Below, one piece after another: positions 3,755 through 31,565 of a stretch of 64,000 nt of DNA. Every line of letters starts with the position of its first letter. Position 1 is the stretch's first letter. The notes beneath the pieces are model-generated. The model searched no databases, had not been told where the DNA came from, and saw nothing but the letters and a program-made list of their open reading frames with translations. Both the position numbers and the translations under genes were made by a program. The stretch comes from Antedon mediterranea (Eukaryota; Echinodermata; Crinoidea; Comatulida; Antedonidae), in the NCBI RefSeq assembly GCF_964355755.1, contig NC_092672.1, forward strand, positions 24,922,501 to 24,986,500, in the 5' to 3' direction.

Positions 3755-5366
3755 AATGGCCGTTTTGATTTTTTGGGTGTTACATTTGACTTAGAAATAA
3801 GCAAAATGACTAAAATAAATGTTGAAAACGGGTAAAATTAGGTCTACTATCAATGTGTGGCGTAAGAGAAATCTTACTGTGTTGTGAAGATTAACTGTGT
3901 TAAAATCTCTAATATTATCAAAACTTAATTATATTTTTACAATGTTGCCAAACCAAACTACAGCTTATCTAAGTGAACTTAATAGGATGTTTTTTTAATT
4001 TTATCTGGAAGGGAAAGGATAAAGTCAAAAGAAATAAGCTAATTAGAGAGTATAAGGATGGCGGAATTAACATGATTAATATCTTCAGTTACATAAAGGC
4101 AGTAAAGGTTAGTTGGATGCGAAGAATTCGTAACACTGGAATTCTCAATGTAGTTTTCAACAAAATATGCCATGGTAAAAAAAAACTGAATCAATCTTTG
4201 AATACGGCTTATGCATGATTTCAGAGACTGTCGAAAAATATGAACAATTTGTTCTGGAGAGATGTTCTCCATTCATGGTCCGAGTTTATTGCTATTCATA
4301 ATTCAACAGCATCTGCAAACTATAACGTACTGAAAGAACCAATATGGTTGAATGATTCGATTCTAATCAATAACTTTCCAATTTTTTACACCAATTATTA
4401 TGAGTGTGGCGTAAGGTTCATAAATGATTTAATCTAGGATAGAGGAACCTTGCTTAGTTATGAAAACTTCAAAACAACCTATAAGGTGAAAAAAAATTAT
4501 TTCCTTAAATACTATGGATTAATTGATGCAATTATAACTTAATACCCTTCTTTGGGTACATAAATAAATACTAAATTACAGAACCCAATAAATTTAACCC
4601 ATACTTGAAACCATAACCAAACCCCAAACAGGATGTAAGCTTTTTATAGTAAGTTTATTCAAAACAAAGACTTTAACTGTAAAGCTAAACAAAAGTGGGG
4701 TAAAATCTTAAATGTTGAATTCTCGGAACATGAATGGGAAGAAATTAATGTTTAATTAACTTTTAATATGACCGACAACGTAAAATTACGATGGTTCCAA
4801 TACAGACTTACAGTATCCTCACGACTAAAGTTTACCTTAAGATTATTAAGTACATCGACGAAGACAACTGCTCCTTTTGTAACATTAGAAGAGAAACAGT
4901 TTATCATTTATTCTGTAAATGTAATATCAGTAGATGGATAAGCAATTTCTTTTTTCAATGGTGTTCTCGAAATCTTGATATTCGTATACGTGTATCGGAA
5001 AGTGAACTGCTTTTTAGTAATACACCATCCAATAGGATTAATTTACTTATTGTCAATACTAAAGTTGTATATATATGAGTAAGTTTTCGGGCCTCCTCAC
5101 ACCCACCGGCCTCATAAGCTTTGTAAAATATTACTTTATAATTAAAAAGTTTAGATGTTTGATTAATAATAGAGCTGAATAATGGGAAGAGTGGAGTGCC
5201 TGGGATAATCTTCTGTAACATAGATTTTTATCGCTCTATTCTGACTTTTTTATAAGGTGTTTATATAGGAGAATTGATTTTGTATAATTTTTCTATTTTA
5301 CTCTTGTCTGCTTTTTTTGTATTTCAATGTATTAAAGAAAGATTGAAAATAAAATAATAAAAAAAA
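3755..5366 (+). pseudogene. Decayed L1/Tx1-like LINE, ORF2 C-terminal part
   Basis: A chain of frames separated by frameshifts and stops spells the C-terminal half of an L1/Tx1-type ORF2. It reads FLGVTFDLEISKMTKIN (about 3765), then KRNLTVL-stop-RLTVLKS (3860-3910), MLPNQ (3945), FIWKGKDKVKRNKLI and GGINMINIFSYIKAVKVSWMR (3973-4150). Next are NLFWRDVLHSWSEF and PIWLNDSILINN (4240-4437), KLRWFQYRLTV (4775) and finally a cysteine motif C-x2-C-x8-H-x4-C within CSFCNIRRETVYHLFCKC (4880-4940). A TGA replaces an expected Gly codon near 3890. The sequence ends in an A-rich tail near 5340-5366. The reverse transcriptase core is absent, so the copy is 5'-truncated and dead. Clade assignment rests on motif order. 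Confidence 0.75.
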
Positions 5367-5828
5367 AACTTAAATAAGGCAAATAGGCCTAATGTTCTCA
5401 AATCTTTACTTCAATTTATAGAGAAATGGTTGATTGCTGTACGATCTTTCGTTCTTAGTTAGTAAATACATCATTCAAGTTGATCCAGGTATTAATCATT
5501 TGTAATGACGTTTAATTGATTGTATTGTTCTTAATGATAACCAGTTTGTACACAGTGTGTTTAAGTATAGTGGTAATACAGTGGTAAAGTGAAGTTATAA
5601 ACTGATTGTTATTGAAACTATGTAAATTATGTAACGCTTGTTTGTATATTTGCAGGGTTTTTCCTTTCTTCGTTCTCTTTATTTTCCGAGTAACGTTGAT
5701 TCGTACACAATAAATGGTATGGTAGCGGCAATCAACAACTTGTTGTCTTTCTGTTGGTCTTGATATTGCATTCATTTGAGCCAAGCCTCGCACGCTTGAT
5801 ACCCGGGGAGAAAACTTCTAAATTAATC
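5367..5828. other. Flank left of the large transposon
   Basis: AT-rich DNA with no recognised gene. It ends with AATTAATC (5821-5828), which recurs at 23623-23630 and may be the target-site duplication of the large element. Confidence 0.4.
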
Positions 5829-6125
5829 GAGCGGGGTTGGTGAAATCTGTCCAAAATAGGTTACTTTTCTGTCCATAATAGGTTACTTTCTGTCCATAAT
5901 AGGAACTAGAGGGCGCTGTTGTTTGTCCATAATAGGTGACTTTCATAATTGGCTGTCCAAAATAGGTGACTTTTTGTCCACACATAGAGATATTATATAT
6001 CTCTATGGTCCACAATAGGCGAGTTTATTGGAGTAGTGCGCCATCCATTGTGTTGTCCATAATAGGTGATTTTGTTGGCGTACTCGTACGTACGTAGTTT
6101 ATTTCGCGAGTAGAAGTAATAAATA
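5829..6125. repeat. Left outer TIR with iterated TGTCCATAATAGGT motifs
   Basis: About eight copies of a ~20-bp word, consensus TGTCCATAATAGGTNACTTT, lie in the same orientation between 5845 and 6070. The inverse set lies at 23395-23605. Iterated subterminal words of this kind are typical transposase-binding sites. Left and right arms differ by substitutions and small indels, including a 12-bp local hairpin ATAGAGATATTATATATCTC at 5983-6003 only on the left. Confidence 0.75.
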
Positions 6126-7029
6126 CTAATAGGAGGCCTAATTAGTATAAACATTTAAGTCTTTCTAGCCTAGGCCTAGGCTAGTCCTGTTAGTTAGGCT
6201 ACCTCTATAGATAGGCATACTAGTACTACTAGCCTAGGCCTAGTCCATTTGTTATTGTCCACTAATAATAATGACAATTTATTCAGCAACAAATAATTTA
6301 ATTTGAACCTCATTTTAGGTTTGATAGTACGGACAGACATTACGCAACTTACCATACTATTGCAAGTTTAAATAAATCACCAAACCCACACATTCTTTTA
6401 CAAAAATAAAAAATACCCCATAATACTCTAATACCGTAATAATATTGATAAAGTTTTATTTTTATAAATGCATTGGTGTTTCAATGTATTTGTTGTATTT
6501 TTTTTTTCTTTGGACTTATTTTGTTTTGTTAACAGTAATAATAAAAATCAACTTTATCAATTTAATATTGAAAAAGACATCACAGTTCAGCACTTCATTT
6601 GTCATTTTAGGTCCTCCCCTATTTCAAAATTCTGGATCCACATAGCTCAATGACAAAATCTAAAGTGGATTAACAAGAATTAATAAGAAATACGACAATA
6701 AATCAAGTTTACATACACGCAGTGTACAATCAACACCTTTGTTCTGTATTCAGAACAGTTTATTCAAAATCTAAATCACATTTAAAAAATACTGAATTAT
6801 ATTAATTTTATAAGTGTAAAAACATGGTTAAACTACAATTTAAAAAATAGCAAGGATAAATAAAATACACCATAATTATTATGTTTATTACTATAATTAT
6901 TGATCGATGATTATGATCAAAAATAATATGTTGAAGTGATGTAATTTTTCATTTCAGCAGCATACTGTATATGAGCAGAATATCAAACATCTGTATGCCT
7001 ATAATAAAAAAAATGAAGTATTTAAATAC

Positions 7030-8500
7030 TATAATAATGTAAGTATTGTATAATGCAAGTAACTTCAATCTTAGTAATGCTGAGACAAATGTTCATGTTG
7101 TATGGTGGGACACAGTTATGTTTAAATATTTTATTGCATTTAAAAAAAGATATGTATGATTGTTTTACTAAATTTAAGTTTATACCAGTTGTCAGAGTCA
7201 ATTATTACCATACTCACTATATGAAAACTGATATTAGTGCTTGTTAGTGATACGGTGAAAGGTCTCCAAAAATTAATAAATAAACTTGAACTTTATTGTG
7301 ATACTTGAAAACTTACTGTAAACACTACAAAATCCAAAATTATGGTTTTTAAAAATGGCCGCAATTTAAGGAACATTGAAAAATGGAAGTATAAAAATAT
7401 TGAATTAAAAATTGTTAATTCGTATAATTATCTTGGTGTTATTTTTAGTTCAAATGGTGCATGGAACAACTCAATGCAACATAATCAACAAAAAGCAAAT
7501 CAAAGTTTATTCTGCTTAAAATCATTCATTTATCGTAACTTATCTTTTCTTCCAATTAATACATGGAACCATAATTATTTTTGATGTGAAAATACTTCCT
7601 ATTTTAACGTATGGAAGCGAAATCTGGGGAATGTCAGATAGCACAAACATTATAGAAAAAACACATACTAAATTTTGTAGATATTTATTGCAAGTTGGAA
7701 AAAATGCACCAAATGCCGCTGTTACTTCTGAGTTAGGTAGATTACCACTTTCTTTGGATTGTTTAGTTACAGTTATAAGATTTTGGTTACATATTATTAC
7801 TTTAGATCATGACAGATTCATTTTTAAGTGTTATGAGTTTCAACTTAGAAAAGTTAACCGTAATGAGAATTGTTGGGCACAACAGGTCAAACACTTACTC
7901 TTTTCTACTGGTTTTGGTTATATATGGTTACAACAATATGTTAATAGTAAAGGTTTATTTTTGAGAGAATTTAAGTTGCGCTTATGTGATATTGAAAAAC
8001 AAAAATGCATTCAAAAATTTAGTTTACATAATAAGTTAAGGCTCTTTTCTCTTTATAAAAAAGAAAAATGTTTAAGTTATCACTTGACCAACATCATTAA
8101 TTTTAAACAAAGAAGATTATTAACTAAGTTACGTTTAGGGATATTAGAGCTAGAAATTGAAAAGGGCAGATGGGAGGGTGTAGAAAGATATAAGAGAACG
8201 TGTAAATTATGTAAAAAGAACATTGTTGAGGATGAATATCATTTTATTTTGCAATGCACATTTTATAATGATTTAAGAAAAAGTTTTATTCCAAGATTTA
8301 TTCGTGTTTTTCCTTCTATTAATAAGCTTTGTTTATTACTTTCCAACACAAATTTTACTTATAATTTAGGAAAATACGTCTACTTTGCTTTTGAAAAAAG
8401 AAACCATTATCTTAAGTTTAGTTAATTTTTATTTGTTTGTATTAGGGCCAAAGGCCAATATACTTTGAACCAATAAATTCCCTGAAAAGGGAAAGAAGAA
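7030..8500 (+). pseudogene. Non-LTR retrotransposon, RT C-terminal region
   Basis: Three segments align in order. A damaged RT catalytic region ends LVLVSDTVKGLQKLINKLE (about 7222-7290), where the YADD-equivalent is shifted out of frame. Then KLTVNTTKSKIMVFKNGRN (7310-7362), with one TGA replacing an expected Trp codon, runs into NYLGVIFSSNG. After a one-frame break at 7584 comes a 279-codon open frame (7586-8425) with ILPILTYGSEIWG and FCRYLLQVGKNAPNAAVTSE, then a cysteine-histidine motif (C-x2-C-x9-H-x4-C at CKLCKKNIVEDEYHFILQC). The last 279 codons are clean while the upstream part is broken. Endonuclease and most of RT are missing. The clade is uncertain. Confidence 0.7.
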
Positions 8501-9611
8501 GATATTAAATGTTTTAAAGACAAAGGCTTTATTGAATGAATGCTTTAATAATATAATATTCAATTAAATTTTGAAATAGTTTCTGCATGAATTTGTTAGT
8601 GGATTTTTATCTATTCTTTGTACTGTGATTGTAATGTTTATAATGAATGGAAATAAAAAGAAAATATCTACTTTTAATTTCTTAGCAATTCAAATGAATA
8701 GAACATTTCAAATCAGAATGTTAAAAATTAATTTTCATGTATTGTCAGTTTTTCTACTACGGTACTGATAAAATTCAGTCTGTCTCTCTGAAAATGTTTG
8801 ACTAAATTGTATCCTTCTTTTCCGAAGATTACTTTTGCAAACAAATACTTTTTCTAAATAGACTTCTTCTTGGGATTTTACAGTATCTCATATTGAAAAA
8901 TGTCCTAAAAGATGTAGGTCTAGTGGGTTATATGTAAAGTATTTTTCTTCAATTGTAGGTTGGGCCTCCTATCTGTTACTTACCCTAGTTAATAGAAATG
9001 TCCATGCTACTGTACTATAACATTGATCAGAAGATACACTGTACCCAATCTTTAATACATGCAAAAAATATGGGAAAAATTGAGATTTAAATAGATGACA
9101 TAATTAATAACAGTAACAATAGCTCTGGCTCTACTATACTGCCAACCTATTAACTGTCCGAACTGTCTGGATAAGACTCATTCATTCACAAAATAATAAA
9201 AAAAAAAACCATTTTAATAATCGGTCAATCTAGCAATCTAGATGTCTGTGATTTGAAGACAAACTACCAATAGGTCTAGTAGACTAGGCTAGTAGTAGGC
9301 CTACTAGTAGTAGCCGATTTCGGTCTTCAAAGTATAGTAGTAGTGGGTGGTGGTGGCAGTGGTATTAGTAAAAGACTGTATAGTGACTAGTCCGCCAGAC
9401 CTGACCTGCAGTTAGGCAGTATAGTTACGAGTAGTCTGTAAAATATTCATATTAAAATAATAAAAAAACAGATAATGAGGATAGGCCTAGTTGTTTGTAG
9501 ACCTAATATGAGCCCATGGGCCATGTCATTTGTATTCCTACTGTAGCAGGGAGGTTCCTATTGTAGCAGGGAGGTACCCCCTGCTGTAAGCTAGGCCTAG
9601 AAAAAAAAGCT
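8501..9611. other. Noncoding AT-rich interior of the inserted element
   Basis: No gene recognised. Contains TAGGCCTAG-rich low-complexity tracts (about 9270-9310, 9480-9600) and a short direct repeat of TGTAGCAGGGAGGT (9543 and 9559). Confidence 0.4.
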
Positions 9612-9783
9612 AACATTTCATTAGTGGACAATAACAAATGGACTCCAGCTAGGCCTAGGCTAGTAGTAGTAGTAGTAGGCCTGAGGTAGCCTAACTAAAA
9701 CAGGACTAGCCTAGGCCCTAGTAGAGGCTAGAGAGACTTAAATAATTATACTAATTAGGCCTCCTACTAGCTAGGCCTAGGTA

Positions 9784-10278
9784 GCCTCGAAGTCTGAAGA
9801 GTACGGTGGCTGATTTCCGCCAAAGAAAACAATTATTTTATAATAATACGGCGTTATAACGCCGTAATTACGGCGTTACAACGCCGTATTAGGGCGTTAT
9901 AACGCCGTATTAGGGCGTTATAACGCCGTATTAGGGCGTTATAACGCCGTATTAGGGCGTTATAACGCCGTATTTACGGCGTTATAACGCCGTAATAGGG
10001 CGTTATAACGCCCTAATTTAGGGCGTTATAACGCCGTATTTACGGCGTTATAACGCCCTAATTATACACTCTGTTCACACGTACTTGCGCTTGCGTAGTA
10101 CATCAACAAACCTCACACACGTCGTCTCACGTGTAAAGAGAAGAAACACAGAAAATTAAAAGTAAGTAAAATTGTATTATTATAACAAAACATGTTTATA
10201 CCTTGGACAATATAATTATTTGAATGAAAATTGGCCTTGTAAATGTAAAGTAGTGCAAGTGACGACAGATAAGGAGTC
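9784..10278. repeat. Left inner TIR with a palindrome array
   Basis: Begins with CGGTGGCTGATTTCCGCC (about 9804), then ten tandem units at 9848-10063 each built on the perfect 14-bp palindrome GGCGTTATAACGCC (one has GTTACAAC), joined by TAAT or TATT spacers. It continues as unique sequence to about 10278 (GTGCAAGTGACGACAGAT), whose inverse is at 21220-21240. Such arrays can extrude cruciforms or bind a dimeric protein. The function is inferred. Confidence 0.8.
10075..10170 (+). promoter_or_regulatory. Candidate TIR-borne promoter and leader exon with donor (left)
   Basis: The segment between the palindrome array and a GTAAGT donor (10162-10167) is conserved in the opposite TIR, where GTAAGT lies on the minus strand at 21345-21340. 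Both donors point inwards toward the nearer gene, HECT on the left and integrase on the right. Conservation of a consensus donor in both arms suggests each TIR supplies a 5' untranslated exon. No TATA or Inr element was clearly identified. Confidence 0.35.
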
Positions 10279-10865
10279 AATCAATGGGCCAAACTAGGCC
10301 TCCTAAATAATAATAAATATTTACACTAGGCCTAGGGGCTAGCCTACTGGGCCTACTTCTTAATGGTGGCCGCACAGCAGCAGGAGGAAGTGCGTGTGAC
10401 GTGCGTGATGAATGTGCTAGACCTGTCGGAGGGCATTAATAGCTAATACATTTACTTAATAATAGGCCGATGTTATTAAATCGATTCAGCTCTCAGAATT
10501 AATAATAATAGCACCCATTCTGATATTTGGAAAATATAATATTTTCCCATTTACAGTATTTAATATTGATTTTGATGTTTTAAATACATATAAAATAATA
10601 TAATATATAATCTTTTTTCACTAACTAAAAGAAGAGTAAATTGATTTTCTATTTTAACAGTTCTGGGCCTAGGTCCTTATATTTATTATAAAGCTACTGA
10701 ATCTACTGTAGCAATCATAGTGAGCTGGACAACATTGTATTTGTAGGCCAGGTTTTTCATTGTTATAAATAAATGAATGCATACATGAAAACAAGTATAA
10801 TATGCAAATTCGCTATACATTCTATGTTTTCATGATATCTCATAAACTAATAATAGTCCATTCTT
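10279..10865. other. Upstream region of the HECT gene
   Basis: AGGCCTA-rich and AT-rich leader or intron sequence. A possible acceptor, TTTTCTATTTTAACAG, lies at about 10647-10662 and could join the TIR leader exon to the HECT coding exon. Confidence 0.35.
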
Positions 10866-13023
10866 ATGAATCAACAGGCAATTAAGGTTCTACTAGTAAT
10901 TGCTACTTCAAGAGGCTCGATTGGAATAGGTAAACCATCAACCAGCGGTACATGGATGGAAAGTGAAATGGGAGAAGATTTACTTTCGATAGATATGTCT
11001 GATATTACTTCAACTGACAGTGATGCTAATACCTTTGTGGATCTAGGCAAACCGGCTGTGGAAGCCAAAGTAGTACTAGTAGCCAATAATCTTCCCATAG
11101 CAAATGGTTTATTGAATTATGATGATAGGAATGAAGGTCTGTCTATAATGAATGACTTAAATTATGAGGTTGAGAGTGGAAATCCTGTCATTCCCAAGTA
11201 TACTAAAGTAAGGCTGCACCGAGGCCATGTTTTGAAAGAACTTACAGATTTCTTTATCAATACTGACCTTAATTGTCCTATTGAGGTTGAAATGGTTAGG
11301 CCTAATGGCCAACTTGAATTTGGAGAAGACTTTGGTGGTGTATTAAGAGATGCTCTTAGTGAATTTTGGGAGGATTTCTACAATTTGTATACTGTGGGAG
11401 AACATCTGAAGGTACCCTGTCTACGGGATAGTATGAGCAAAGAAAAGTGGCAAGCCACAGCAAAAGTTCTGGTTATCGGATATAAGCAGGAAAGTTTCTT
11501 CCCGTTCAAATTAGCAGTACCGTTTTTACAATATGTGATGGATGCCACCATCATCAATTCAAACCATCCATCAATGATACCCACTTTTTTAGAATTAGTT
11601 GCAGACAGTGAAAAAATTGTTTTAGAAACGGCACTGAACAACTTCTCAGATGTGGATGAAGAGGACCTATTTGATATCCTCGACAATTACAAGGTAAAAA
11701 GAAATGCTACGAGTGACAATATTAGAGCAATTCTACAGGATGCTGCCCACCGTACCTTGATACAGGGAACATCATACATAAGTAGATGCTGGCACAGCGT
11801 GTTTGTAGAACACTTGAAACCCGTTCTACATACAATGAACATTGAAGATATCTGTCAAACAGCTATACCAACAACCAGGCGCGTCATAGCTGCGTTAAAT
11901 CTGCCCCAAGATGCATCAGAAGAACAAAGAAATACGACTAAACTTCTTCTCAAATTTATAAAGAGTCTGTCTGTGGATAAGTTAATGACATTTATGAGAT
12001 ACACTACAGGTAAGTTCATTTGAAAATAAGGTTTTTAACCGATGTTAAGGCTAGCCTCTATCCCTAGACATAAATACTTTTTCCAAATTTGTAAAAAAAG
12101 ATTTTGGTATATTTTATTTTTAAAGGGTATTACTAACTGTGCAACAAAACCAATTAATATTGATTAGATGACAACTAGAACTATAAAAGGAGACAATATA
12201 GTTCTATTTGTGATCTAATTAATATTATTATTAATTAGTTTGAAGGAGGTTTCTCAAAGGTTTTTTTTTTAAATTATCTCCTATATGATCTAATTAATAA
12301 TTGGTTTGAATGATATTTGTGTTTTAGGGATTTGCACTCTGAAACCTGTATTTTTGCCGGAAAAATGTATGTTTTTCAACCCAAAAACTTGCATTAATTT
12401 CAATAATTTTGTTTTATAAATTGTCTTCTTTTTAGATCTAATCATGTTATGGTTATAATCAATATAATATAAGTGGTTTGCAGGAGGTTTGAGTTTTTTT
12501 TAGATTTGCGCTGTGAAATCTTTAATGTAAAAATGATTTTTTTTTACTCAAAAACTGGCAAACTTTACATTATTTAAATATTTTTTCCCCATAAATTATC
12601 ACCTTTTAGTGTTCTAGTTGTGATCTAATCAATATTGATCACTTTAAATGAGGTTTGACCTCAAATACGAAAAAAAAAATGTTTCACTATCACTATTTAT
12701 GAAGATGAACCCTATCCCATAATGTTTTCAGTTTTTTACTACTAGTAGTAGAGGCTAGCCTTAAATTATTAATAATATGTTATTATATATCATTATATGT
12801 ATAAATTTATTTTTTCATTTCTTCATTTAAAGGAGCTAATCAAATGTTGGGAAAGAAAATAACAGTGCGTTATGTTCAACAGTCTGACTTTGAGAGACGT
12901 CCAGTTGCGCATACATGTGGGTGCATCCTTGAATTGGCTTCTAGCTTTAAAGACTACATTGAATTTCGATCAGAGTTCAGTGCTGTGTTAGAAAATAACA
13001 TTTGGGTAATGGACATTGTGTAG
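10866..13023 (+). CDS. HECT-type E3 ubiquitin-protein ligase-like protein (transposon-borne)
   Basis: Exon 1 (10866-12009, 381 codons plus one base) ends at the donor CTACAG/GTAAGT. The intron carries an ATTTCTTCATTTAAAG acceptor, and exon 2 (12833-13023) completes a 444-residue protein. Residues ~1-110 are acidic and Ser-rich with no recognised domain. From ~115 on it reads as a HECT domain: an N-lobe opening (IEVEMVRPNGQLEFGEDFGG, then LRDALSEFWEDF) and a C-terminal lobe RRPVAHTCGCILELAS. Cys410 of AHTC is the predicted ubiquitin thioester cysteine, 35 residues from the end as in HECT ligases. It resembles the small HECT proteins often annotated 'G2/M phase-specific E3 ligase-like'. HECT enzymes transfer ubiquitin from an E2 via that cysteine. 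Its role in a transposon is unknown; it might target host or transposase proteins. The start is provisional because an upstream exon is likely. Confidence 0.75.
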
Positions 13024-13069
13024 AAAATTAAACAAGTAGCTAAAAAAATGATAATATGTGATTTTAGCA

Positions 13070-13755
13070 AGATACAGACAATCACGATTATGTTTATTCT
13101 TTTTATTTGATATTATGTTCACAATATTCAGCAGCAAATGTCAAATATTGTGATCACTGCAGTCGAGGTGTAAAGCTCGGAGATGTATCCAAGAGTTGTG
13201 ATATACTGTAATACAGTATATGATAAATGAAACCTCTTCTTAAGCATTTTAAATCTAAAATAAGATATAAGGGAAGTTTTGTTTGTTGGGTTTTTTTTTT
13301 TAAATATGTTTCCATTTGTGATATTTTGAAAGTGTTGTTTGTAAATGATATAGCCTAGACCACTTCTTTAAAAAGTAAATGATTTAAAATATTTGTTGTT
13401 TTATAATAATTATGGAATATGTTTATTTACATGTGTTCCGAGAATATACAGTAGTTTCATAGTTTTTATATTGTACGAGCATTTAAAGTCGAATCAAGTC
13501 AGTGTGCACTATGGAGTAAAAAAAATCTTTTTCAAAAGAAAAGTAACAGTGTGTTATTGATAAGATCGTCAAATCCGTTACCAAACAACAATACCATCAC
13601 GATTATGTTATATTTTTATTTGATATTATGTTCACACTATTCGGCAGCAAATGTCAATATTGTGATCACTGCAGTCGAGGTGTAAACCTCTGAGATGTAT
13701 CCAAGAGTTTTGAAATACTACAGTACTGTATATGATAAATGAAACCTCATTTTAT
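13070..13755 (+). repeat. Direct duplication of ~160 bp, 515 bp apart, downstream of the HECT gene
   Basis: 13083-13245 and 13597-13745 share most of their sequence (for example GTGATCACTGCAGTCGAGGT, ATCCAAGAGTT, AGTATATGATAAATGAAACC), with small indels. They lie just after the HECT stop codon, in what is probably its 3' UTR or flank. Confidence 0.75.
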
Positions 13756-16700
13756 TTTAAGTTATGTAAAAGGGAATTTTTGTTTATTGAAAAAAACATT
13801 TGTGTTGAGAGTGGTAAATGATTACTTTAAAAGGTAATCATGTGTTCCATAGTTTTTGTATTGTATGAAAAATCTTAGTGAAATAATGAAAAATTAAGTA
13901 CAGTTTAGGCCTATTGATGTTATTGATAAGATTTCTTAAATCCGTTGCCATACACATTTGTTGTTTGTTTGTAAAAATAGATAAGTTGATCATAATATGT
14001 AAAAAACAGTTAACTGGAAGAATAATACTGTTTTATTCATAATTTAGATCAAGAATAGGCACTTTACTAAGCATGTTTTAACGCATAACATGGTTGGTGA
14101 TTTCTATCAATAATTCTTAAACATTTATGCATTATGTAAAAACTTGCCGCATCCAGATATACATTCCAGGTAAAAGACAATCTCATTCATAATGTAATAC
14201 TGTAGTAAAAGTCTTAATTCACAACCTTATCTTGGCAGTTTTATGTGTTGGCGTTGAATTGTAACTAGTCTATTGATGACATTTATATATAATATAAGCA
14301 TTTGAATAAAGAGTTTTATTATTGCAAAAACATGTTTCATTAGCTTATTATGGGTATTAAAGTAACTTGAAAGTTCAGTGGAGCCATGGAGTATCAAAAT
14401 AACCGGAATTTAAGGCTACTGGAATGTTTATAACTAAATTTTAAAAACATCACAGAGGGGTTGTGTGTTGGAAGTGACCATTAGATATCAAAATGACTGG
14501 AATTTGTACTTGGAAGGTTTTAAACTACTGTTGTAGGAAAGATACCCGCACTATGGTGGGTATTTCTTCTATTACATAGTACTGGCAAATGCATATTAGC
14601 CAGCTGGGTATTCAGCAATCACACATGCATGTTTACGGCAACAAATATATCTGGCTCGTTCGTTTACATACATTATGTAACTGACAACTGGGATAGGGGC
14701 TTCCAAACGACTTAATTCATTTTAACCATAATAATGATTTACAAATTACATTAAAAGGAGTGGATGCGTTACAAATGATTTCCAGTATGACTCGCCTTCC
14801 CATCCCATGATGTCTTGCAACCTGTAAAGGCACGAAAGGTGATTTGATTTTTCAGCTACTTTGTTGTTCACTATATCAGATATCGTCTTTAGTATGTTTT
14901 TGCTATACGAGTTAAAAAGTGCACATCATTACACATCAACTGTCATGTATAAGCACATAAGCTTCTTCGTGATTGCCATTAGCAGATCATTTGTCCTTGT
15001 TTAACTTGCATCTTGAAAATCTACTCACTGTTACCAACTCGTATCATTCTTGTATTGTTCTCTCTGTATTCATTATATAGGTAACTAAAATGCCTGACAG
15101 CAATGTTTACTGAATCCTTAAACTGGTAGTGAATGACTATCATGTTTTTAAGTTTTCAGCTTCTGGAACATCTGTGAGTATGTCAACGCCATCCATTAAG
15201 ATATGTATGAAGTCAGATTTGGCTGAAGAAATTGAAATTGATCTATGATCATGCTCTACTTTATGATATTCACCAACTTCAATGTTGTTGATGCTTTCTC
15301 AGTGGCTTATAAAATTCTACTTTTTTTCTCTTTAGTTGTTACTTTAAATGTGAGCTCTTCCTCATAATCCGTCAGGTCGAAAAGATATTGTGTATTATGT
15401 TTATGTACCATGTCATGCAGAACCTATCACTGAATGAATTGTTTCTTGTTGTACCATATAATTCTATTTTGAATCATAAATGATCCACTCAGTTTTTAAA
15501 ATATTTGGTGCTGATTGCTTATGGAGTTTGATCTTTTATCACCGACGAGCATAAATAGTATAGTCATAAAAGCAAAAACCAAGATAGCATAGATGCAAGT
15601 CTCAAGATGGAGAACCCTTCTAACTTTGATAAAGTCCGATTAATTAGGGTGTTCAAAAACAGAGAATCGATTGACCCAGATTTCTCTTTCAAGATTTTTC
15701 GAAACAGAAACCTCTCAGCAAAAACTTTTGTTATTGTATTGTATCATTCAAAGATTGAACAAAACAACTTCTCAATAATTATGTTATAGGGGCCCGGGTC
15801 TCTGTTTTTTGACATTTCTCAAAACCAAAAACCCCAACACAATTTTTCAACTTTAGGTCGTATAGGGAGTCTCTGTTTTTGAGATTTCTCGAAAACATAA
15901 ACCCCCAAAAGCAGGCCATATACATGGCTGCAGTCGCGTGCTCAAGTTAGTGTTTATCGACCCACCAACCGACCGACATAGTGAGCTGCACGCGACTAAA
16001 AAATTCTCAATATTACGTTATATATAGGTAGTAATAGTATTATAGTAAAATATAAATAGGCTATATGGCGTTTCATGTACCTATTTTCCGGACAAAAATC
16101 GAAACGCTGACTGGTGGACAACATATAAAAATACAAATTACCAACAGACTGGCAAAAGTCTATAAAAGTTTGTGTAATTAACCAATTTTCTATCTAAATT
16201 ATGTTACAACAGCTTTTTAAGAAAATGACACTTTTGTATTTAATTTCCTATGTTTTTATGTGTAGAATAAAATGTTTATCTGTATATAATTACTATAATA
16301 TGAAATGACTAGATGATCTTCAAAAATAGTTTTTTTTTGTGAATAGATCTGTTGATGTAGATGATTTTCCATGAAAAAACGTAAAAATCCTATATTTTGA
16401 CCTTGTTTGACCGTTTCACCCTATAAACTGACCTTAAAACCCAAAACTGAGGATTGCATCCACCCCTATCATTTTTGTCAACCCACAAAGGATCCATCCA
16501 ACATGGTTGCTGCTATTAACCAAAAAATCTTCCCAAATTTTTTTCTAGAGGACTTTTCAGTATTTGGCCTCTCTACTTATTACCATGCTCTATTTTTTTC
16601 CTCATTAAAACATCTTTTATTGATGCCTATCCTCTGATAAGCCTTCATGCAAACTTCTTTATGACGAGTAATTTCAAATCTTTCGATATTAAAACCAAGA

Positions 16701-17359
16701 TCTTTCTGGTTAACAACTTTTTTACATATTGAAGAGAAGCGTGGAACCTTAAAATTAGGAACCATTGCTTTGACCAGGATGACAACATACCTAAGTCCTT
16801 CTGTAGCAGGTCACAATCATCATAGCTTATAATTTCTTTTAATTATTGAATATTGTCCGCAAACATTTTGGCAGTTGCTTCCCGCCATTCTTTATTGTTA
16901 TTCTCATTCTTTATTTCCTCTCTCTTTTTAAAAATGCCGTCACCATTTTATACCATTTATTATGCAATGTATTAATAACGAATTGCAAGACCTTAATAGA
17001 TAGCATATACCCTAGGCCTATATTTCTTTGATTGTATGTTATGATTGTATTGTATGATATACAAACAAACGGTAAAAAGCGTCAATGAATGATATATATT
17101 GTATGTTTGTTATGACAGTGATAAACCCAAAACAACAACTGCGATATTACGTAAACTAGGTAATTTTAAAAAAGAAGATTAAAAAATGAAAACTCCACCT
17201 CCACTAAATGAACACACCAATTGAAGAATAAACACTCATTGTCGATAATCATTTGTACTTTTATTTTCTGTAGACATCTTATATACTACCATTTGTTTTA
17301 ATCTAATCAATACATCATACATAACGGAAACAAAAAATATCGATTCTTTCATGTCACGA
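13756..17359. other. Transposon interior without a recognised gene
   Basis: Only short unsupported frames. Two related segments, CTCTGTTTTTTGACATTTCT (15800) and CTCTGTTTTTGAGATTTCTC (15863), are preceded by a similar one near 15680, suggesting a decayed local repeat. I could not identify a third transposon gene here. Confidence 0.4.
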
Positions 17360-17670
17360 TTATTATATATCCTTGGTTCTCTATTGTTCATCCTGTATAT
17401 CAATGATATGCCGATGACACATCTATTTTATTTTCAATAAAAAAATTTAACTATCTGTATGAAGAACCTAAATTAATAAAATAGTAAATTAAATACGTTA
17501 TTTTTTCGGCAATAAACTTTCTAATAATTTCAATAAATCAAATGCTTTATGGATGAAACAATCTTATAAAATCTTCAAATCTTAATGACATTGAGATTCA
17601 ACTGGTAGACCTCGTTAAGTTTCTTGGTGTATTGACTCTTATTTAAGCTGGAAACATCAAATGCAAACAG
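17360..17670 (+). pseudogene. Short reverse-transcriptase remnant (non-LTR type)
   Basis: Conceptual translation with gaps gives LGSLLFILYINDM (about 17371-17410), then a deletion into ADDTSILFS (17412-17440). This is the RT core, where IND..., YADDT normally follow each other at a longer distance. Further on comes NDIEIQLVDLVKFLGV (about 17586-17630) followed by SWKHQM-like sequence. Several stops and frameshifts make it clearly dead. It lies inside the large transposon, so it is a later insertion or debris. Confidence 0.5.
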
Positions 17671-18002
17671 GAAAAACAAAATAATCTTGACAGAGACTTC
17701 AATATCAACCTTTTAATTTGCACAGATAATTAAACAATTAATTACTACCAATAATTGAAATGTTTACTCTCTCTAGCAACTGAACCCATCAGAATAACAA
17801 ATAAATAAGATAAACATGAACATTATTGCCAGGAAAGTGGATTAACTTTTTTGTAAGATTATTTTCCTAATTGCTATTGGTATCTACGAACAGCAGCATT
17901 TCTAAACTGGTGTCGGTGTCTTCTAGGCTTGCCAAACGGATTCGACACATTTCTACATAAACTATAAAATATGATATAATTATATAAAATATTTATTTAT
18001 TA

Positions 18003-18543
18003 AAGATGTATTGTCCCTTGAAACACAAAATATGAAGGTCAAAATATTCTAAATTTAAATTGGCCATATCAAAGTAATATTAAAGTTATTCACTTTAAGT
18101 CGAAAATTCGAGCCAAAAACAAAAAGTTTACGTAATTAACAGGTAAATTAATTTGATTACATTTCGTCTGGAAAATCGTCGTGAGTGAAAGTAAACAAAG
18201 ATTTCAAACAACGAGTATGCATTATGCATGATGCTAATTAGGATTCGTCACGGGTGAGAAGGTGTTCTCACACAGATCGTGAAAAAGTTTTATGATTATG
18301 CATACAGAGTAGCCAAACAAGCGCGTTGCATTATGGGATATGTTTTGATCGAAAACTTTGACTCGAAGTCAAAGTTATTTTTTGAAAAAAAAAACGTCTA
18401 TATTTCAGTTAAATGAATTTTTTGTTCGACTCATTTTCAGTGAAAGTTAATAACTATTCTATGATACTTCAAAATCACCCACTTATTTTCGAAATCTTTT
18501 TGTTTAACTTTTTTTTAAATTAGTCAAAGGGACAATACATCTT
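18003..18543. mobile_element. MITE with AAGATGTATTGTCCC inverted ends
   Basis: Left end AAGATGTATTGTCCCTT (18003) mirrors the right end AAGGGACAATACATCTT (18527-18543), both flanked by TA (18001-18002, 18544-18545). A TA target duplication suggests Tc1/mariner-type mobilisation. About 541 bp, noncoding. The same ends occur at 38003-38287. Confidence 0.75.
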
Positions 18544-18766
18544 TATCATTTTCATTTTATTATATTATATTAAAATGTAATTTAAACCAAGGCAGCTATG
18601 CATAAAGAAACATACAATGTACAGTTACCTAATGTAGCCTCAATTGCAAATGTTGTATCTATATTGTATTAATACCATAATTATTGTAATTTATTTTTTT
18701 TTGGTAGAAAATAAAATTTAACATTGAACTTGCGAACTCTGTATAATAAAAGAATATTTCTTGTTG

Positions 18767-20454
18767 CTAAAAAAATCCAATTTCTCTTCTAACACAATCC
18801 CTTAGGTTGATGTGAAAGAGCATAGAACCTTCTGGAGTAGTTGGGATCTCCCATTCGTTGAATATGATTGTATTCAAACAGTATTCAAATAGATCACGAT
18901 CACATGGGTATTCGTCTTTGAATTTACTGGATTCTTTACAAAGGTCTATTCTCCTCTGATCTACCTGCTTGATGTGATCCCTGCTGTGATAAACCTGTGG
19001 CAGCTGAAACATCACTAGAGGGCGTCCATTGGTAACATGGTCTTGCTTAGACCTTCTTATCAAATGAGTGTCCCATAACTCCGCTTTTCTATCAAGATCA
19101 TCCGGCATAAATGTAGACAATGATAATCATAAATACATAATTCATAATCTAAATCCAACGTATTACAAGCTTGAAAACGAATAAGCGAGTTTCGAGTGAT
19201 TGTTTCTCAGAAATGGCATCCATGTATTTATTATTTAAAAAATGCAATATCTTTTTAACCAGGAGCTGTACAGTAGGTATGGCATATGAAGATGTGTTGA
19301 AATTTGTGTTGTGATCATGAAATACTATGTACATTAGCTAGATTGACATTGAGGTAAAAAAAATCTAATGTAGCCTATTTAATTAAACTACTGCATCTGT
19401 TAAAATTTGAAAGCGTTCCTTTATTAGGAAAAAAAATCCATAAATTAACAGACAACCAAAATTGATATGCCTTCCATTTTAATGCTTATAATTGATATTC
19501 TACATTTACATGAAGATGCCAGATGATCAACAGGCATTATGAGTGGAATATGCCTTCCTTACATTGGATACTGGTTGGTTAACGCACAAATTCATGACAG
19601 AAGTTACTAACCTGAATAAGCCTCATTAACACAAATCTAACAAGTTCTTTGTCCAATAAGTCACCAGAGAAGTGGCCTTCATGAATAAGATATTTAAAAA
19701 TCAAAATCCAAAACTCTGTGCACTGCTTCCTTAATTGTCCCCACCAAGATTCTATCCTTTGGTTTGCCGTACTTTGGCCACTCAAGTAACTCTTTTTGCC
19801 AGCAAACGTGTCATCATGATTTCTGAGAAACATCTGAAATGCCGCAATATGCCCATTTTCTGTTCCTTTGTCTGTTCTGACAAGAGTAGGACATCCTCCT
19901 ATCCTTTCGACTGCTTTCAAGAAGAAACCTCCAATATAAGCTGGATCATTTGTTGTGCTGTTCGCCTCAAGCCAAATTAGTTTTCTTGAAAACCCATCAA
20001 TGCATCCATTAATACCAATGCCATACGGTTTGAGTTTGTCCATTGAATCGACATGCCATACAAAATTCGGCCCTCTGGCTGAATATCGTCGACGTACTAA
20101 TCTTCGCCTTTTCCGAAGCTTCACCCCTTCTGGATCTAGTTCAAGTAGAATCTTTCTAACGTTTTCTCTACTAACAACCATACCTGCCTTTACCAACCTC
20201 AGATGCATCCAGCGATAACCATGTAACTCACCACCTCTTTGCAATAGATTTAGTATAAATCTTCTAACTTGATCAATGTCAGTTTGTTGTCTGTGACGGT
20301 ACAGTTCTAGGCGCTGTAGTTCCCTTTGCAGCTGACGAATGCTTATGTTAACGTCATAACAGCAACTCAATGTGGCTGCTATTTCAACATGTGTATACCC
20401 AGACTTGAAATAATACTTGATAAGTTCATCCGTTTCATTCAATGCCACTTCCAT
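18767..20454 (-). CDS. IS3/rve-type DDE integrase (transposase) of the large transposon
   Basis: The main exon (20454-19612) starts at MEVALNETDELIKYYF and encodes 281 residues. It has an N-terminal helix-turn-helix (about residues 9-48), then the HGYRWMHLRLVKAGMVVSRE helix-turn-helix seen before IS3-type integrase cores, a basic KLRKRRRLVRRRY linker, and a DDE core. Asp136 lies in FVWHVDSMD, Asp195 in VRTDKGTEN and Glu235 in QRIESWWGQ, a D-x39-E spacing close to the D35E of IS3 and retroviral integrases. The exon ends RLIQ at a phase-0 donor CAG/GTTAGT. A second exon (19102-18767, DDLDRKAELWDTHLIRRSKQ onward) continues in phase 0, but the bases before it are CG instead of AG, a possible splice-site lesion. 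It would cut and join the TIR ends. An upstream in-frame Met at 20526 gives an unlikely hydrophobic leader. Confidence 0.75.
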
Positions 20455-20529
20455 GAAGATTAAATTATAAGAAAAAAAAAGTACAATTAACACCAAATTT
20501 ACAAAGATATACTGAATATCTTTCACAAA

Positions 20530-21211
20530 AGACAGCTCACTGTTCCAACCTGTAGGCCTATGTCAGAACAACAACACATACAGTATAATGTTACAATGTC
20601 ATAAAATTGTGAAATGCCACACTCACAATGATTTTCAACTAATGCCTATATTAATAATTCCAAATAAACGTATGATCTCCATTCAAAAAGTCTAATTATG
20701 TTTGTCTCCGTTTATAATGGTTATACATTAAACCATGGAGAGCCTCCATCACGATTAGGCCTAGCCTTATAATAGGTATTAGCAACATTATTACTAAATA
20801 AGTACTATTTAAGCATGGACCAAATTTATAGGTCTATGATTTAAGTAAGCAATATGCACAGTTCTAGTGTTAATTATAGGTGGCGCTATTTCGTCTAACA
20901 GTATGCCTTGAGTTGAGAAACTATTTTCCAAATTAAAAAAAATTGCATAATAATACTATAATAGGCCTAAACCGGTCCTAGTTCTGAGAGCGGGATCGAT
21001 TAAATTCCTGATTGTGATAATTATACTTATAGGCATCTTTCAGCTATGTCCAGCGCTAACAGGAAGCATACATACAATTAACATGAAGCGCATCACACAC
21101 GCACGCAACCCCTTCGGCCCACCATTTATTATAGAATACTGTAGGCCTACAGGCCTAACTAGTAACTATTACAATTATTATTAGGCTCAGCCTACCAGCC
21201 CATTAATTTAA
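20530..21211. other. Upstream region of the integrase gene
   Basis: Noncoding, AGGCCTA-rich. It contains a possible minus-strand acceptor (GATATTCAG, near 20514-20522) that could receive the TIR leader exon ending at 21346. Confidence 0.35.
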
Positions 21212-21838
21212 TTCATTATCTGTCGTCACTTGCACTTATAGTGTAAAATTTTACAAGGCCAATTTTCAATCAAATAATTATATTGTCCAAGGTATAAACA
21301 TGTTTCTTATAATACAATAATAATAACTACTAGGCCTATACTTACTTTTGATTTCTGTGTTTCTTCTTATTACACGTGACGCTGTGGAGGCGTACTACGC
21401 ATGCGCATGTACGTGTGAACGGATTGTATAATTAGGGCGTTATAACGCCCTAATACGGCGTTATAACGCCCTAATACGGCGTTATAACGCCCTAATACGG
21501 CGTTATAACGCCCTAATTAGGGCGTTATAACGCCCTAATACGGCGTAAATAAATAAAGTAAAATAACGCCGTAAATACGGCGTTATAACGCCGTATTAGG
21601 GCGTTATAACGCCCTAATACGGCGTTATAATGCCGTACTTACGGCGTTATAACGCCCTAAATTAGAGCGTTACGCCCTATACGGCGTTATAACGCCCTAA
21701 TACGGCGTTATAACGCCCTAATACGGCGTTATAACGCCCTAATGCGGCGTTATAACGCCCTAATTACGGCGTTATAACGCCGTATTATTATAAAAAAAAA
21801 TTTTCTTTGGCGGAAATCAGCCACCGTAGAAGAGAAAG
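21212..21838. repeat. Right inner TIR with a longer palindrome array
   Basis: Inverse of 9784-10278. The array 21433-21786 has about 16 units of GGCGTTATAACGCC or one-base variants. One unit is split by a 17-bp insertion (21546-21562) and one is shortened to GAGCGTTACGCC (about 21664). It ends in TTGGCGGAAATCAGCCACCG. The unit number differs from the left arm (10), so the arrays expand or contract independently. A minus-strand GTAAGT donor at 21345-21340 is shared with the left arm. Confidence 0.8.
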
Positions 21839-21845
21839 CAAATTA

Positions 21846-23332
21846 AGGCTGGTTTCCTGTCGACATAAGAACATCATTTTTGTAGCGACTATGTCGATTT
21901 GTCGTAAGAAATGCGGGTTTTACAGGAAACCGATTACGATCGAAAATTTATAAAATCGACGCAACGTAAGAAAAATGGTAACGACAAACGATTTTACAGG
22001 AAACCGATGACCTAACAATTGTTGCGTTACGACGTTTTCTTCCGATTTTACAGGAAACCGGGATTTTTTGTCTTATGCTTGAATGAACGCCCTTGCGTCA
22101 CGTTTCTTACGTCTCTTACGAAAGTTGACTTGAAGTCAACTTTCGCAAGAGACGTAAGCGCAATCGTAACAAGCAACCAATGAGCGACAAGAGTTATGAC
22201 GTAATGTGTATGACCTTATAGTGAAATAAAGCCGGATAATATTAACATTTGTATGTATTTAATACTAATTTTAGCCAACTTTACGATGTTGTAGGCCTAC
22301 ATACTTTACAAATGCACAGTAGTTTCAATATAGGCCTAATAATGTTCTAATCAGGGAGTTCACAACTCATATCAAAATATAATACCGGTACTCTTATTTA
22401 TGGACGTGCAATAAACAATCAGCATTTCAAAGAAACCGACATTCTTCTGTCACGAAAAATTAACATTTGCAACAAGATAAGATATAGAAAGCCCCTTTAT
22501 AAGCAATATAATATTATTACGTAACTTTTAAAAAAACTGTTTGTTTGATTTTGTATAATTTATATTGTTTTGTTAAATTTATTCTTATTATAGGCCTGTA
22601 AATAATGGGTATCTTACTGCGGTAGTACTATCTCATGCTCGATTAGAAATGCCTGGGCCCATAGGCCATGGCCTATGGCCTAGCATGGAACTATAATATA
22701 ATAGTTCCATGGGTAGGTCTAATAATAATAGGAATCCCGAAATGATTTGCCTTTTTTTAATTTTGAAAACTATTTAAGGCTAGGCCTAGAGGGCCAGGAT
22801 AATTAATTCATATTTGTATCCATACACTACTACATAGCCTAGGCTAGTTTGATTAGATTTTGGTCAAATCAATTCATATTAGTACAGTATTAATTAAGTA
22901 TTATTACTAATACTAGGGCCTAGCCTATCTACTGAAAATAATATGTTGGTGTGCTGCACTGACCTGAGTAGCTACAGGTACAATAACAACATTCAACATT
23001 TCGCGCGAAAAAGGATAAAACCCGCTCTAAAAAAAGAAACACCAATCAGAGATGTTGTTTCAAATACGTCATAAATCTGACCGACGTAAGAAAAAAATTT
23101 CAACTTTCGTAACAACACTAAAATCGACGTAAGCATACGACGTTTGTTTCACAGACAAAATTTCAACTTTCGGGAGCAGCATAACTACAGATGTTTCTTT
23201 GCGGGCCGACACGATCTTGACTAACGTCAACGACGTCATTTTTTTCTCAACTTTCGTAAGAGACGTAAGAAACGTATGAAACGCAAGAATCGTTGCAAAA
23301 TTTGACTTCTTACGTCGACAGGAAACCAGCCT
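21846..23332. mobile_element. PIF/Harbinger-type non-autonomous element
   Basis: TIRs AGGCTGGTTTCCTGTCGAC (21846) and GTCGACAGGAAACCAGCCT (to 23332) are flanked by TTA on both sides (21843-21845, 23333-23335), the 3-bp TWA duplication typical of PIF/Harbinger. About 1.49 kb with no coding frame. Subterminal words related to TTTACAGGAAACCG recur at about 21910, 21995 and 22050. It interrupts the right arm of the large transposon. Confidence 0.8.
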
Positions 23333-23335
23333 TTA

Positions 23336-23622
23336 GTATTAACTAATATAATAATACTATTACTTCTACTCGCGAAAACGTACGTACGAGTACGCCAACA
23401 AAATCACCTATTATGGACAACACAATGGATGACGCACTTCTCCAATAAACTCGCCTATATTGTGGACAAAAAGTCGCCTATTTTGGACAGCCAATTATAT
23501 TATTATGAAAGTTACCTATTATGGACAAACAACAGCGCCCTCTAGTCCCTATTATGGGCAGAAAGTCCCCTATTATAGACAGAAAAGTAACCTATTATGG
23601 ACAGATTTCACCAACCCTATTG
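23336..23622. repeat. Right outer TIR of the large transposon
   Basis: Inverse of 5829-6125. It shares CTCGCGAAAACGTACGTACG-like sequence, ACACAATGGATGACGCACTT, repeated CCTATTATGGACA words and the terminal TGGACAGATTTCACCAACCC. It abuts AATTAATC at 23623-23630. Confidence 0.75.
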
Positions 23623-23630
23623 AATTAATC

Positions 23631-30025: not shown

Positions 30026-31565
30026 ATAAAAAAAACATAAAAAGAATACAAACAATACAACAAACGGATACAAAATAAATGGCGTGAATACAGGAACAAC
30101 TAATTTTAAACCAACCGACTCGATCTCTGTTGTAGTCACACATCACTGAAATAAAAAAAACATTAAATATTAGGGTAATAAGTGAAAATAATCATAATAA
30201 CTTAAACTATAGTATATATAATAATGACTGAAAAATATCGATAACTGAAAGGGTAACATACACTACTCCACACTAACATTTGCAAGCTAGCTCTGAGATT
30301 ATAATTTTGTTTTTCCATGATCTTTATCCACATAGATTGTTATTGCTGAGGAAAAGTGTATAGTGTTTATGTGTACTGTTGCATACAAAGTCACGTTAAA
30401 TTAATAATGTTTCTTTCCGAAGTCCAGGCAATCTAACAACAGGATGCAGGATCTATTATGCTATAATAATAAATTAATAATGTTTCCCTCCGAAGTGCTA
30501 TACTAGATCACGTTATACCCAGATATTTATAATTTATACTACACTCTAGATAGAAAAAGAGATCATTCAAACACACTAATATCGATCAGCAAGAAGTTAA
30601 TTTTGAAAAAAATGAGTTGCAACCATAATTTCCACATTTGGCTAGCCTGAGATCATGTTTACTATTATAAATGCCAATACCTTTAGTCTTATAATAGTGC
30701 CCTCTATAATGGTTTGACATTTTTTCAAAATATTATAGTGCCCTCTATAGTTTAGACATAATTTTATAAAACCTCCAGGAATATTTAATTTTTCCAAATT
30801 GATAATTTTAGGTTCACATGAATTGACTGCTTTATAATTATCAGCGAAAGACGCTGCATGGATCCATATCAGTTTGTATATTGCGTTAATGAGGACGATT
30901 TTTTATTTGTTATTTTTTAAATCCATTTGGCTCATCTGACAAAGGTAAGTCCTATGCATATCTTCATTTTTGAAATTTCCTCTCGGCATTTAATACCATC
31001 GACTCTCTTATGTATTAATAGATAAGCTTTGTTTTGCCCATGCCTCACCTCCATCTATCCAATCTGGAGCAGTTGTATCGTTGATGGTGATTTTACTGAA
31101 ATGAGTATTTTAAGAATGTTGTTTATAACAGAGGCAAAATGTTTTTGAACAAAAATGAGACCGTCGATATCTAGCTTTGAATGAAGCAATTGTTGTGGAA
31201 TATTTAATTTCAGTTGGTAGGTTATTCCATATTTAAGAATTTTGTTTTAACAGAGGCAAAAACATTCCACAATATCAGTGTTCAGTGGCATGGTACAAGT
31301 TTACACCATGAGGCAAATGTATTTCTAATGTTATATTAAAATAATACACTTGACGTTAATGCTATTAGGCCTGTCAATTTGGCTGATATGCAAGAGCTTA
31401 TGGTCAGTGTGATAAAACTGGGTAGATTCAGAAATACAAGATATTCGATATAATACTCGTAACGAAGAGTTCAAGTATGTTTACATGACCATTGCGTGAT
31501 GGTATATCATTAACATCTTTAGGCTTATACAGGATTACACTATCAGGTAAAAGAAAAAATACTTA
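30026..31565. other. Intergenic, no gene recognised
   Basis: AT-rich. Short direct repeats occur: TAATAATGTTTC with CCGAAGT (30403 and 30474), and ATAGTGCCCTCTATA (30692 and 30735). An ACAGAGGCAAAA-containing segment recurs at about 31128 and 31249. Confidence 0.4.

What the first reader, a model, noticed from the sequence alone, without database searches (positions are those of the whole stretch)
5829..23622. Large transposon with paired HECT ubiquitin ligase and IS3-like integrase genes
Seen: two sets of inverted arms that reduce to one long TIR after removing two nested insertions. They enclose a HECT protein with the catalytic AHTC cysteine and a DDE integrase with D, D and E in place. 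Known: IS3-like DDE elements exist in eukaryotes (IS3EU), and small HECT genes are numerous in fish and invertebrate genomes. Inference: the HECT ligase is a cargo or accessory gene, perhaps controlling host defence factors or transposase turnover, which would explain the spread of such HECT genes.
Basis: partly seen in the sequence, partly recalled or inferred. Interest (0 to 1): 0.88.

Follow-up and report, generated by a model that had tools for sequence, protein, structure and literature searches.

The report
Transposon carrying a ubiquitin ligase gene
A jumping gene in this genome carries a HECT-type ubiquitin ligase gene beside its integrase-like transposase, and many related jumping genes in the same genome do too, which suggests the ligase is a working part of the element, perhaps aimed at the host's defences.

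Summary
The outer arms (5829-23622) are the ends of a different, non-autonomous element (8-bp TSD AATTAATC) whose fetched copies hold neither gene. HECT and integrase lie in a second element nested inside it, window 9802-21828 (12,027 bp), with TACGGTGG..CCACCGTA ends and 6-bp TSD GAAGAG; 14 of 14 copies of the outer element chosen because they hold the site show it empty. TA..TA ends, 6-bp TSD and a PF24764 integrase fit IS3EU. In the same genome, 31 facing pairs of these ends were found among 100 listed places: 28 short pairs hold neither gene, 3 long ones both, none only one. Of 56 integrase-related loci, 33 have a HECT match within 15 kb, about 0.26 expected; 23 are convergent. Nine divergent HECTs keep the catalytic cysteine. 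Two families with 80% identical integrase cores carry HECT C-lobes only 25% identical, so the ligase seems to have been replaced. Best reading: an IS3EU-like transposon with a persistent, exchangeable E3-ligase gene, probably acting on host proteins. Structure well supported; function inferred. No paper with both IS3EU and HECT is in the held library.

The parts
9802..21828 (.). IS3EU-like transposon, 12,027 bp, TACGGTGG..CCACCGTA
   Evidence: ends and TSD; same ends bound both genes at two other loci
9796..9801 (.). left target site duplication GAAGAG
21829..21834 (.). right target site duplication GAAGAG
9802..10289 (+). left terminal inverted repeat with tandem GGCGTTATAACGCC units
   Evidence: 82-90% to 21198-21828 reversed
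21198..21828 (-). right terminal inverted repeat with the same units
10857..12009 (+). HECT gene, exon 1 (open frame from the preceding stop; first ATG 10866); lacks the N-terminal domain seen in L029 and L032
12833..13023 (+). HECT gene, exon 2 with the AHTC catalytic motif and stop
   Evidence: GT..AG intron 12010-12832; Pfam on the spliced protein
19579..20562 (-). DDE integrase/transposase, 327-aa open frame, PF24764
18767..19126 (-). probable 3' exon of the integrase gene, 119-aa open frame; Pfam finds no domain in it
   Evidence: no Pfam match; ORFs in the same place follow the integrase in families 2 and 3, likeness judged by eye
5829..23622 (.). outer, non-autonomous element A into which the transposon inserted (hAT-like by recall)
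   Evidence: copies without the two genes
5821..5828 (.). TSD of element A, AATTAATC, left
   Evidence: read
23623..23630 (.). TSD of element A, AATTAATC, right
   Evidence: read
7236..8501 (+). stretch inside element A that its other copies lack; LINE-like by eye, no Pfam match
21846..23332 (.). another small nested element, TIR AGGCTGGTTTCCTGTCGAC, probable 3-bp TSD TTA
   Evidence: absent from 14 of 14 chosen A copies

Best explanation
Window 9802-21828 is an IS3EU-like cut-and-paste transposon with two convergent genes: a DDE integrase-type transposase and a HECT-family E3 ubiquitin ligase. SHOWN: bounds, TSD, empty site, two more end-bounded copies with both genes, and repeated pairing of integrase-related loci with HECT genes in divergent families of this genome. 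INFERRED: the transposase binds the long TIRs with their tandem repeats, excises the element and joins it to a target cut with a 6-bp stagger; the ligase, made from the opposite strand, takes ubiquitin on its AHTC cysteine. COMMITTED GUESS on purpose: it marks a host factor that would silence or restrict the element, so the ligase changes fast and is replaced between families while the transposase stays alike. I give that purpose 0.4. The confidence here is for the element and its persistent ligase gene, not for the purpose.
For: Empty site in 14 of 14 chosen copies of the outer element. 106 matches of the end against 0 and 1 for the reversed pattern; 3 long pairs hold both genes, 28 short ones neither, none one. 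Exact 6-bp TSD in 9 of 12 pairs read, 3 of 3 long ones. 33 of 56 integrase loci with HECT within 15 kb, 23 convergent, about 0.26 expected; for comparison 2 of 40 listed element-A places lie near HECT, one being the window itself. Family 2 element C1:8954369-8968774 with TSD CGTAAG, integrase 49% and HECT about 30% identical. Catalytic cysteine kept in 9 of 9 paired HECT lineages compared. dN/dS 0.35-0.54 in five of six HECT pairs.
Against: HECT assignment of the window protein is marginal (24.9 bits, cut-off 23.9; best PDB match by sequence is IQGAP1 at E 0.016, E6AP only at 0.82); structure models were too poor to use. 23 of 56 integrase loci had no HECT match within 15 kb. The window HECT lacks the N-terminal domain, and the other two long copies have broken HECT or integrase frames, so no long copy of this family is shown fully intact. 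One dN/dS value is 1.05 (10 differences). No expression or activity data.
Confidence: 0.85

Rival explanations
1. One reading: one transposon of about 18 kb whose single long TIR (outer plus inner arms) was split by two insertions.
For: Both arm sets are inverted, nested and in register.
Against: The outer arms plus the left 'insertion' form a separate element in many copies without the genes; 14 of 14 chosen copies show the empty site with one GAAGAG; inner ends alone bound both genes at two other loci.
Confidence: 0.02
2. Same element, other purpose: the ligase controls turnover of the element's own transposase, or helps transposition or repair after excision, as was suggested for OTU and Ulp1 domains of Ginger1 (PMC2836005, passages).
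For: Constant company of the two genes; ubiquitin-removing domains sit in other transposons.
Against: HECT and integrase do not diverge together: rank correlation 0.15, p 0.46 over 28 non-independent pairs of 8 families, and families 2 and 3 have like integrases but unlike HECTs. Weak evidence, as C-lobes are short.
Confidence: 0.35
3. Neutral cargo: HECT genes were caught by chance and are carried along without use.
For: Many copies are broken; one close HECT pair shows dN/dS 1.05; 28 short pairs move without either gene, but they also lack the transposase and so say little.
Against: At least nine HECT lineages paired with integrase, all nine with the cysteine; dN/dS 0.35-0.54 in five pairs.
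Confidence: 0.12
4. Sub-question (odds apart from the others): the unlike HECTs of families 2 and 3 arose by very fast change of one gene, not by replacement.
For: Short alignment (78 columns), long branches flagged by the tree program; N-terminal domains of family 1 and family 3 still match (28%, E 3e-11); the family-3 HECT was compared exon by exon, which lowers sensitivity.
Against: Family 2 HECT still matches family 1 over both lobes (34%, E 1e-22; 31%, E 4e-36) but not family 3 (best E 0.003 over 15 residues), while its integrase is closer to family 3 (80% against 57%).
Confidence: 0.3

Closest known systems
IS3EU / GingerRoot DNA transposons (PMC10045372, parts 1-3 of 5 read)
   Same: TA..TA ends, 6-bp TSD, integrase-type DDE transposase, TIRs.
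   Different: No HECT or other E3 ligase is mentioned in the parts and passages I saw; no paper of the held library has both words IS3EU and HECT.
Fungal IS3EU with alpha-kinase and TET/JBP genes (PMC12730594, passages)
   Same: TAYGG..CCRTA ends, 6-bp TSD; a second enzyme gene in the opposite orientation to the transposase; accessory genes pass between transposon lineages.
   Different: There alpha-kinase and TET/JBP dioxygenase, here an E3 ligase; other hosts.
Ginger1 with OTU or Ulp1 domains (PMC2836005, passages); Helitrons with VTD or OTU deubiquitinases (PMC9741609, passages)
   Same: Transposons that encode ubiquitin-pathway enzymes.
   Different: Those remove ubiquitin or SUMO and are domains of the transposase protein; here a separate gene whose domain adds ubiquitin.
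Small G2E3-like HECT genes of fish and invertebrates
   Same: Small HECT proteins in many copies; unclassified candidate repeats of the fish Cottus matched, among others, G2E3 (PMC5638112, passage).
   Different: A link to IS3EU was not tested outside this genome; likeness of the N-terminal domain to fish proteins is recalled only.

Membership tests
IS3EU | TA..TA ends (TAYGG..CCRTA in fungal families) | tested here: met
   TACGG..CCGTA; criterion from PMC10045372 and PMC12730594
IS3EU | 6-bp TSD | tested here: met
   exact in 9 of 12 pairs, 3 of 3 long ones; two short ones share the same flanks
IS3EU | DDE transposase that groups with IS3EU transposases in a tree | tested here: inconclusive
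   PF24764 match and D, D, E present; no reference proteins to build the tree
IS3EU | no HHCC zinc finger before the core | not tested
   Pfam reports none in the window protein at 0.01, which is no direct test
HECT E3 ligase | HECT domain above the Pfam cut-off | tested here: met
   24.9 bits, cut-off 23.9 (window, spliced); family 2 30.2, family 3 46.2, family 4 40.7 bits
HECT E3 ligase | catalytic cysteine in the C-lobe | tested here: met
   AHTC in the window; a cysteine at that place in 9 of 9 paired lineages
HECT E3 ligase | ubiquitin transfer activity | not testable with these tools
   needs a bench assay
Ginger1 / Ginger2 | 4- or 5-bp TSD and Gypsy-like rve integrase core | tested here: not met
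   6-bp TSD; PF00665 not matched in the window protein at 0.01, E 0.07-0.09 and below cut-off in families 2 and 3
Polinton | polymerase and other self-synthesis genes beside the integrase | tested here: not met
   only HECT and integrase ORFs of 100 aa or more on sense strands of 9802-21828; its 6-bp TSD (PMC10045372) is shared

The most novel reading that the evidence does not exclude
Animal IS3EU-like transposons have a standing E3-ligase slot: a second, usually convergent gene that is as a rule a ubiquitin ligase but is swapped over time, HECT for another HECT, and at C11:20.72-20.73M perhaps HECT for RING while the same N-terminal domain is kept. The ligases would be anti-defence effectors, and much of the spread of small HECT genes in animals would be debris and domesticated copies of these elements.
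Probability: 0.4. Interest if true: 0.85.

Novelty: new variant of a known kind. Interest (0 to 1): 0.72.

Why it matters
The transposon-borne ubiquitin enzymes met in the passages read (OTU, Ulp1, VTD) remove ubiquitin or SUMO; a ligase that persists over divergent element families would be a transposon-encoded way of marking host proteins, as some viruses do. It offers a concrete, testable source for the multiplication of small HECT genes in animal genomes, and a way to find host factors that restrict DNA transposons by asking what these ligases bind.

Tried and rejected
Second integrase matches near family-3 elements looked like a paired-transposase design; at C9:15.66M they are part of a 0.9-kb inverted terminal repeat that copies a piece of the gene; the others were not read. 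Integrase in viral contigs: 72 stretches matched a pattern, none was confirmed. Solved structures by sequence: integrase profile no match at 0.01; HECT only weak matches. AlphaFold models of integrase (mean pLDDT 50.6) and HECT exon 1 (33.5): too poor, no fold search made. Coelacanth paper PMC4255032 looked promising in a listing; no HECT in its main text. PMC12062965 main text holds neither HECT nor IS3EU.

Choices that shape counts. In one search hits were merged into loci by gaps of my choosing (3 kb integrase, 5 kb HECT, same strand). Ten of the 33 paired loci are not convergent: nine are second integrase matches beside a HECT already counted as convergent with another, one (C6:14.56M) is a different layout. 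The binomial value assumes independent loci and is not used. In one search one start was typed 19 bases off (C11:16189894), which leaves the tally unchanged; 6 of 106 places were not listed by the tool. In one search I took 14 loci that hold the site or are complete copies; the other fetched loci were not used. The HECT tree left out five of 24 rows (one host piece without the cysteine region, two unpaired and two near-identical family-3 rows).
Full report
What is there. The inverted arms are strong and real, and two convergent coding regions lie inside: a HECT gene on + and an integrase on -.

The bounds. The outer arm gave 68 matches in the same genome (40 of 107 candidates scored). Twenty stretches were fetched. 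So the outer arms and 6126-9775 are one element, A, here 5829-23622 with TSD AATTAATC; its ends, CAATAGGGTTGG and GAGCGGGGTTGG, and the direct repeats seen at other copies resemble hAT elements (recalled, not tested). The two genes lie in a second element, 9802-21828. Of the fetched A copies I took 14 that hold the site; all 14 read through it with one GAAGAG, and none has the right-hand insert. This is a pre-insertion site for both inserts.

More copies. The end TACGGTGGCTGATTTCCGCC with up to two mismatches occurs 106 times, against 0 and 1 for the reversed pattern. Among the 100 places listed there are 31 facing pairs within 30 kb: 28 of 81-5100 bp hold neither gene, 3 of 12.0, 16.4 and 17.5 kb hold both, none holds one (set against the matches). 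Flanks of 12 pairs were read: an exact 6-bp repeat in 9, including all 3 long ones (GAAGAG, TAATTC, CTCTTC); two short ones share the same flanks and are probably one duplicated site; the other three pairs match at 4, 5 and 1 of 6 bases. A fourth, broken copy with both genes lies at C10:10.10-10.12M. A HECT copy at C1:28753804, 99% identical, keeps one end but has no integrase match within 15 kb; two HECT fragments at C7:13.70-13.71M and a decayed copy at C1:29.62M have none either.

Other families. The integrase search gave 80 matches, the HECT protein 17, the Pfam HECT model 106. Merged, 33 of 56 integrase loci have HECT within 15 kb, 23 convergent; 24 of 56 HECT loci are near an integrase match; a random place would be near HECT with chance about 0.0047. 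The loci are not independent, since many are copies of one family; what counts more is that nine HECT sequences that I treat as separate lineages are involved, eight convergent to the integrase and one (C6:14.56M) not. As a comparison, 2 of 40 listed places of element A lie within 15 kb of HECT, the window's own and C7:13.70M. Family 2, C1:8954369-8968774, 14,406 bp, has TSD CGTAAG, long TIRs, integrase 49% and HECT about 30% identical to the window's; its HECT frame holds a stop between the two stretches read. Family 3 at C9:15.66M keeps its right end, while its left end looks lost. Family 4 at C3:10.87M has an open 452-aa HECT frame, 40.7 bits.

Loci without a HECT match. Twenty-three of 56; I read three. 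L041 holds a HECT remnant whose DNA is 98.8% identical over 249 bp to family 4. L078 holds a convergent 685-aa open frame that Pfam does not call HECT, but that matches the family 4 HECT (24%, E 2.5e-7) and, weakly, E6AP (E 0.022). L077 holds, in convergent direction, an N-terminal domain like that of the family 3 HECT protein (33% over 83 aa, E 4e-16) and 2.1 kb further a RING finger (PF13920, 41.2 bits, cut-off 27). Whether these two exons form one gene, and where that element ends, is not shown. The other 20 were not read.

Evolution of the ligase. All nine paired HECT sequences compared keep a cysteine at the catalytic place. Integrase cores of families 2 and 3 are 80% identical over 130 positions (sisters, support 100/98), yet their HECT C-lobes are 25% identical; the family 2 HECT instead groups with the window's (99/97; direct E 4e-36 and 1e-22), whose integrase core is 57% identical. 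The tree program warned of long branches, and family 3 was compared exon by exon. Replacement of the ligase is the simplest reading; very fast change is not excluded. Pairwise dN/dS of HECT exon 1 is 0.35-0.54 in five of six comparisons (one of these on six differences only) and 1.05 in one with ten differences; codons with gaps or stops were dropped.

State of the window copy. The integrase frame and both HECT exons are open, with GT..AG intron ends. The N-terminal domain found in L029 and, in two frames, in L032 is absent here and in L035, so this copy may have lost its substrate-binding part (inference). Of the other two long copies, the one on C10 has two stops in HECT exon 1 and the one on C1 has an integrase match split over overlapping pieces; no long copy of the family is shown fully intact.

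How it probably works. The transposase side follows from established integrase chemistry and the TSD. The ligase side is inference: constant company argues for use, exchangeability argues for a target that changes, which points to host factors more than to the transposase. I put 0.4 on host-defence targeting, 0.35 on self-control or help in transposition, 0.12 on neutral cargo, the rest unknown.

In print. No paper in the held library has both IS3EU and HECT, and one search found none with five of its six terms. Further searches listed 25 of 60, 15 of 114, 4 of 4, 1 of 1 and 9 of 9 papers; in those listings and in the passages opened I saw none that describes a HECT gene in an integrase-type transposon, but most listed papers were not opened. 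Repbase entries and subscription papers were not searchable, so earlier notice there is possible.

Noticed in passing
window 27212-30030: A tandem array with a unit of about 26 bp, copies 92-97% alike.
   Followed up: no
L009, L024, L025 (C3:22.96M, 23.91M, 22.14M): The window's flanks recur at 94-98% identity on the same contig, with element A at the same target site, so this part of C3 has been duplicated.
   Followed up: partly
L077:1211-1804 and 3953-4234 (C11:20.72M): Near an integrase relative, a HECT-protein-like N-terminal domain is followed by a RING finger instead of HECT; one gene or two is open.
   Followed up: partly
L038/L039 (C9:15.66M): A 0.9-kb terminal inverted repeat that copies part of the integrase gene to the other end; similar facing integrase matches at eight other HECT loci were not read.
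   Followed up: partly
C6:17983525-18068881: Five HECT loci in 85 kb without integrase matches nearby, perhaps a tandem array of host HECT genes.
   Followed up: no
C7:13694501-13713794: An element-A end, two ends of this transposon and HECT fragments lie together, perhaps a second case of the same nesting.
   Followed up: no
window 13024-18766: 5.7 kb between the two genes without any open frame of 100 aa or more; part holds a 160-bp direct repeat (13078-13236, 13593-13748).
   Followed up: no
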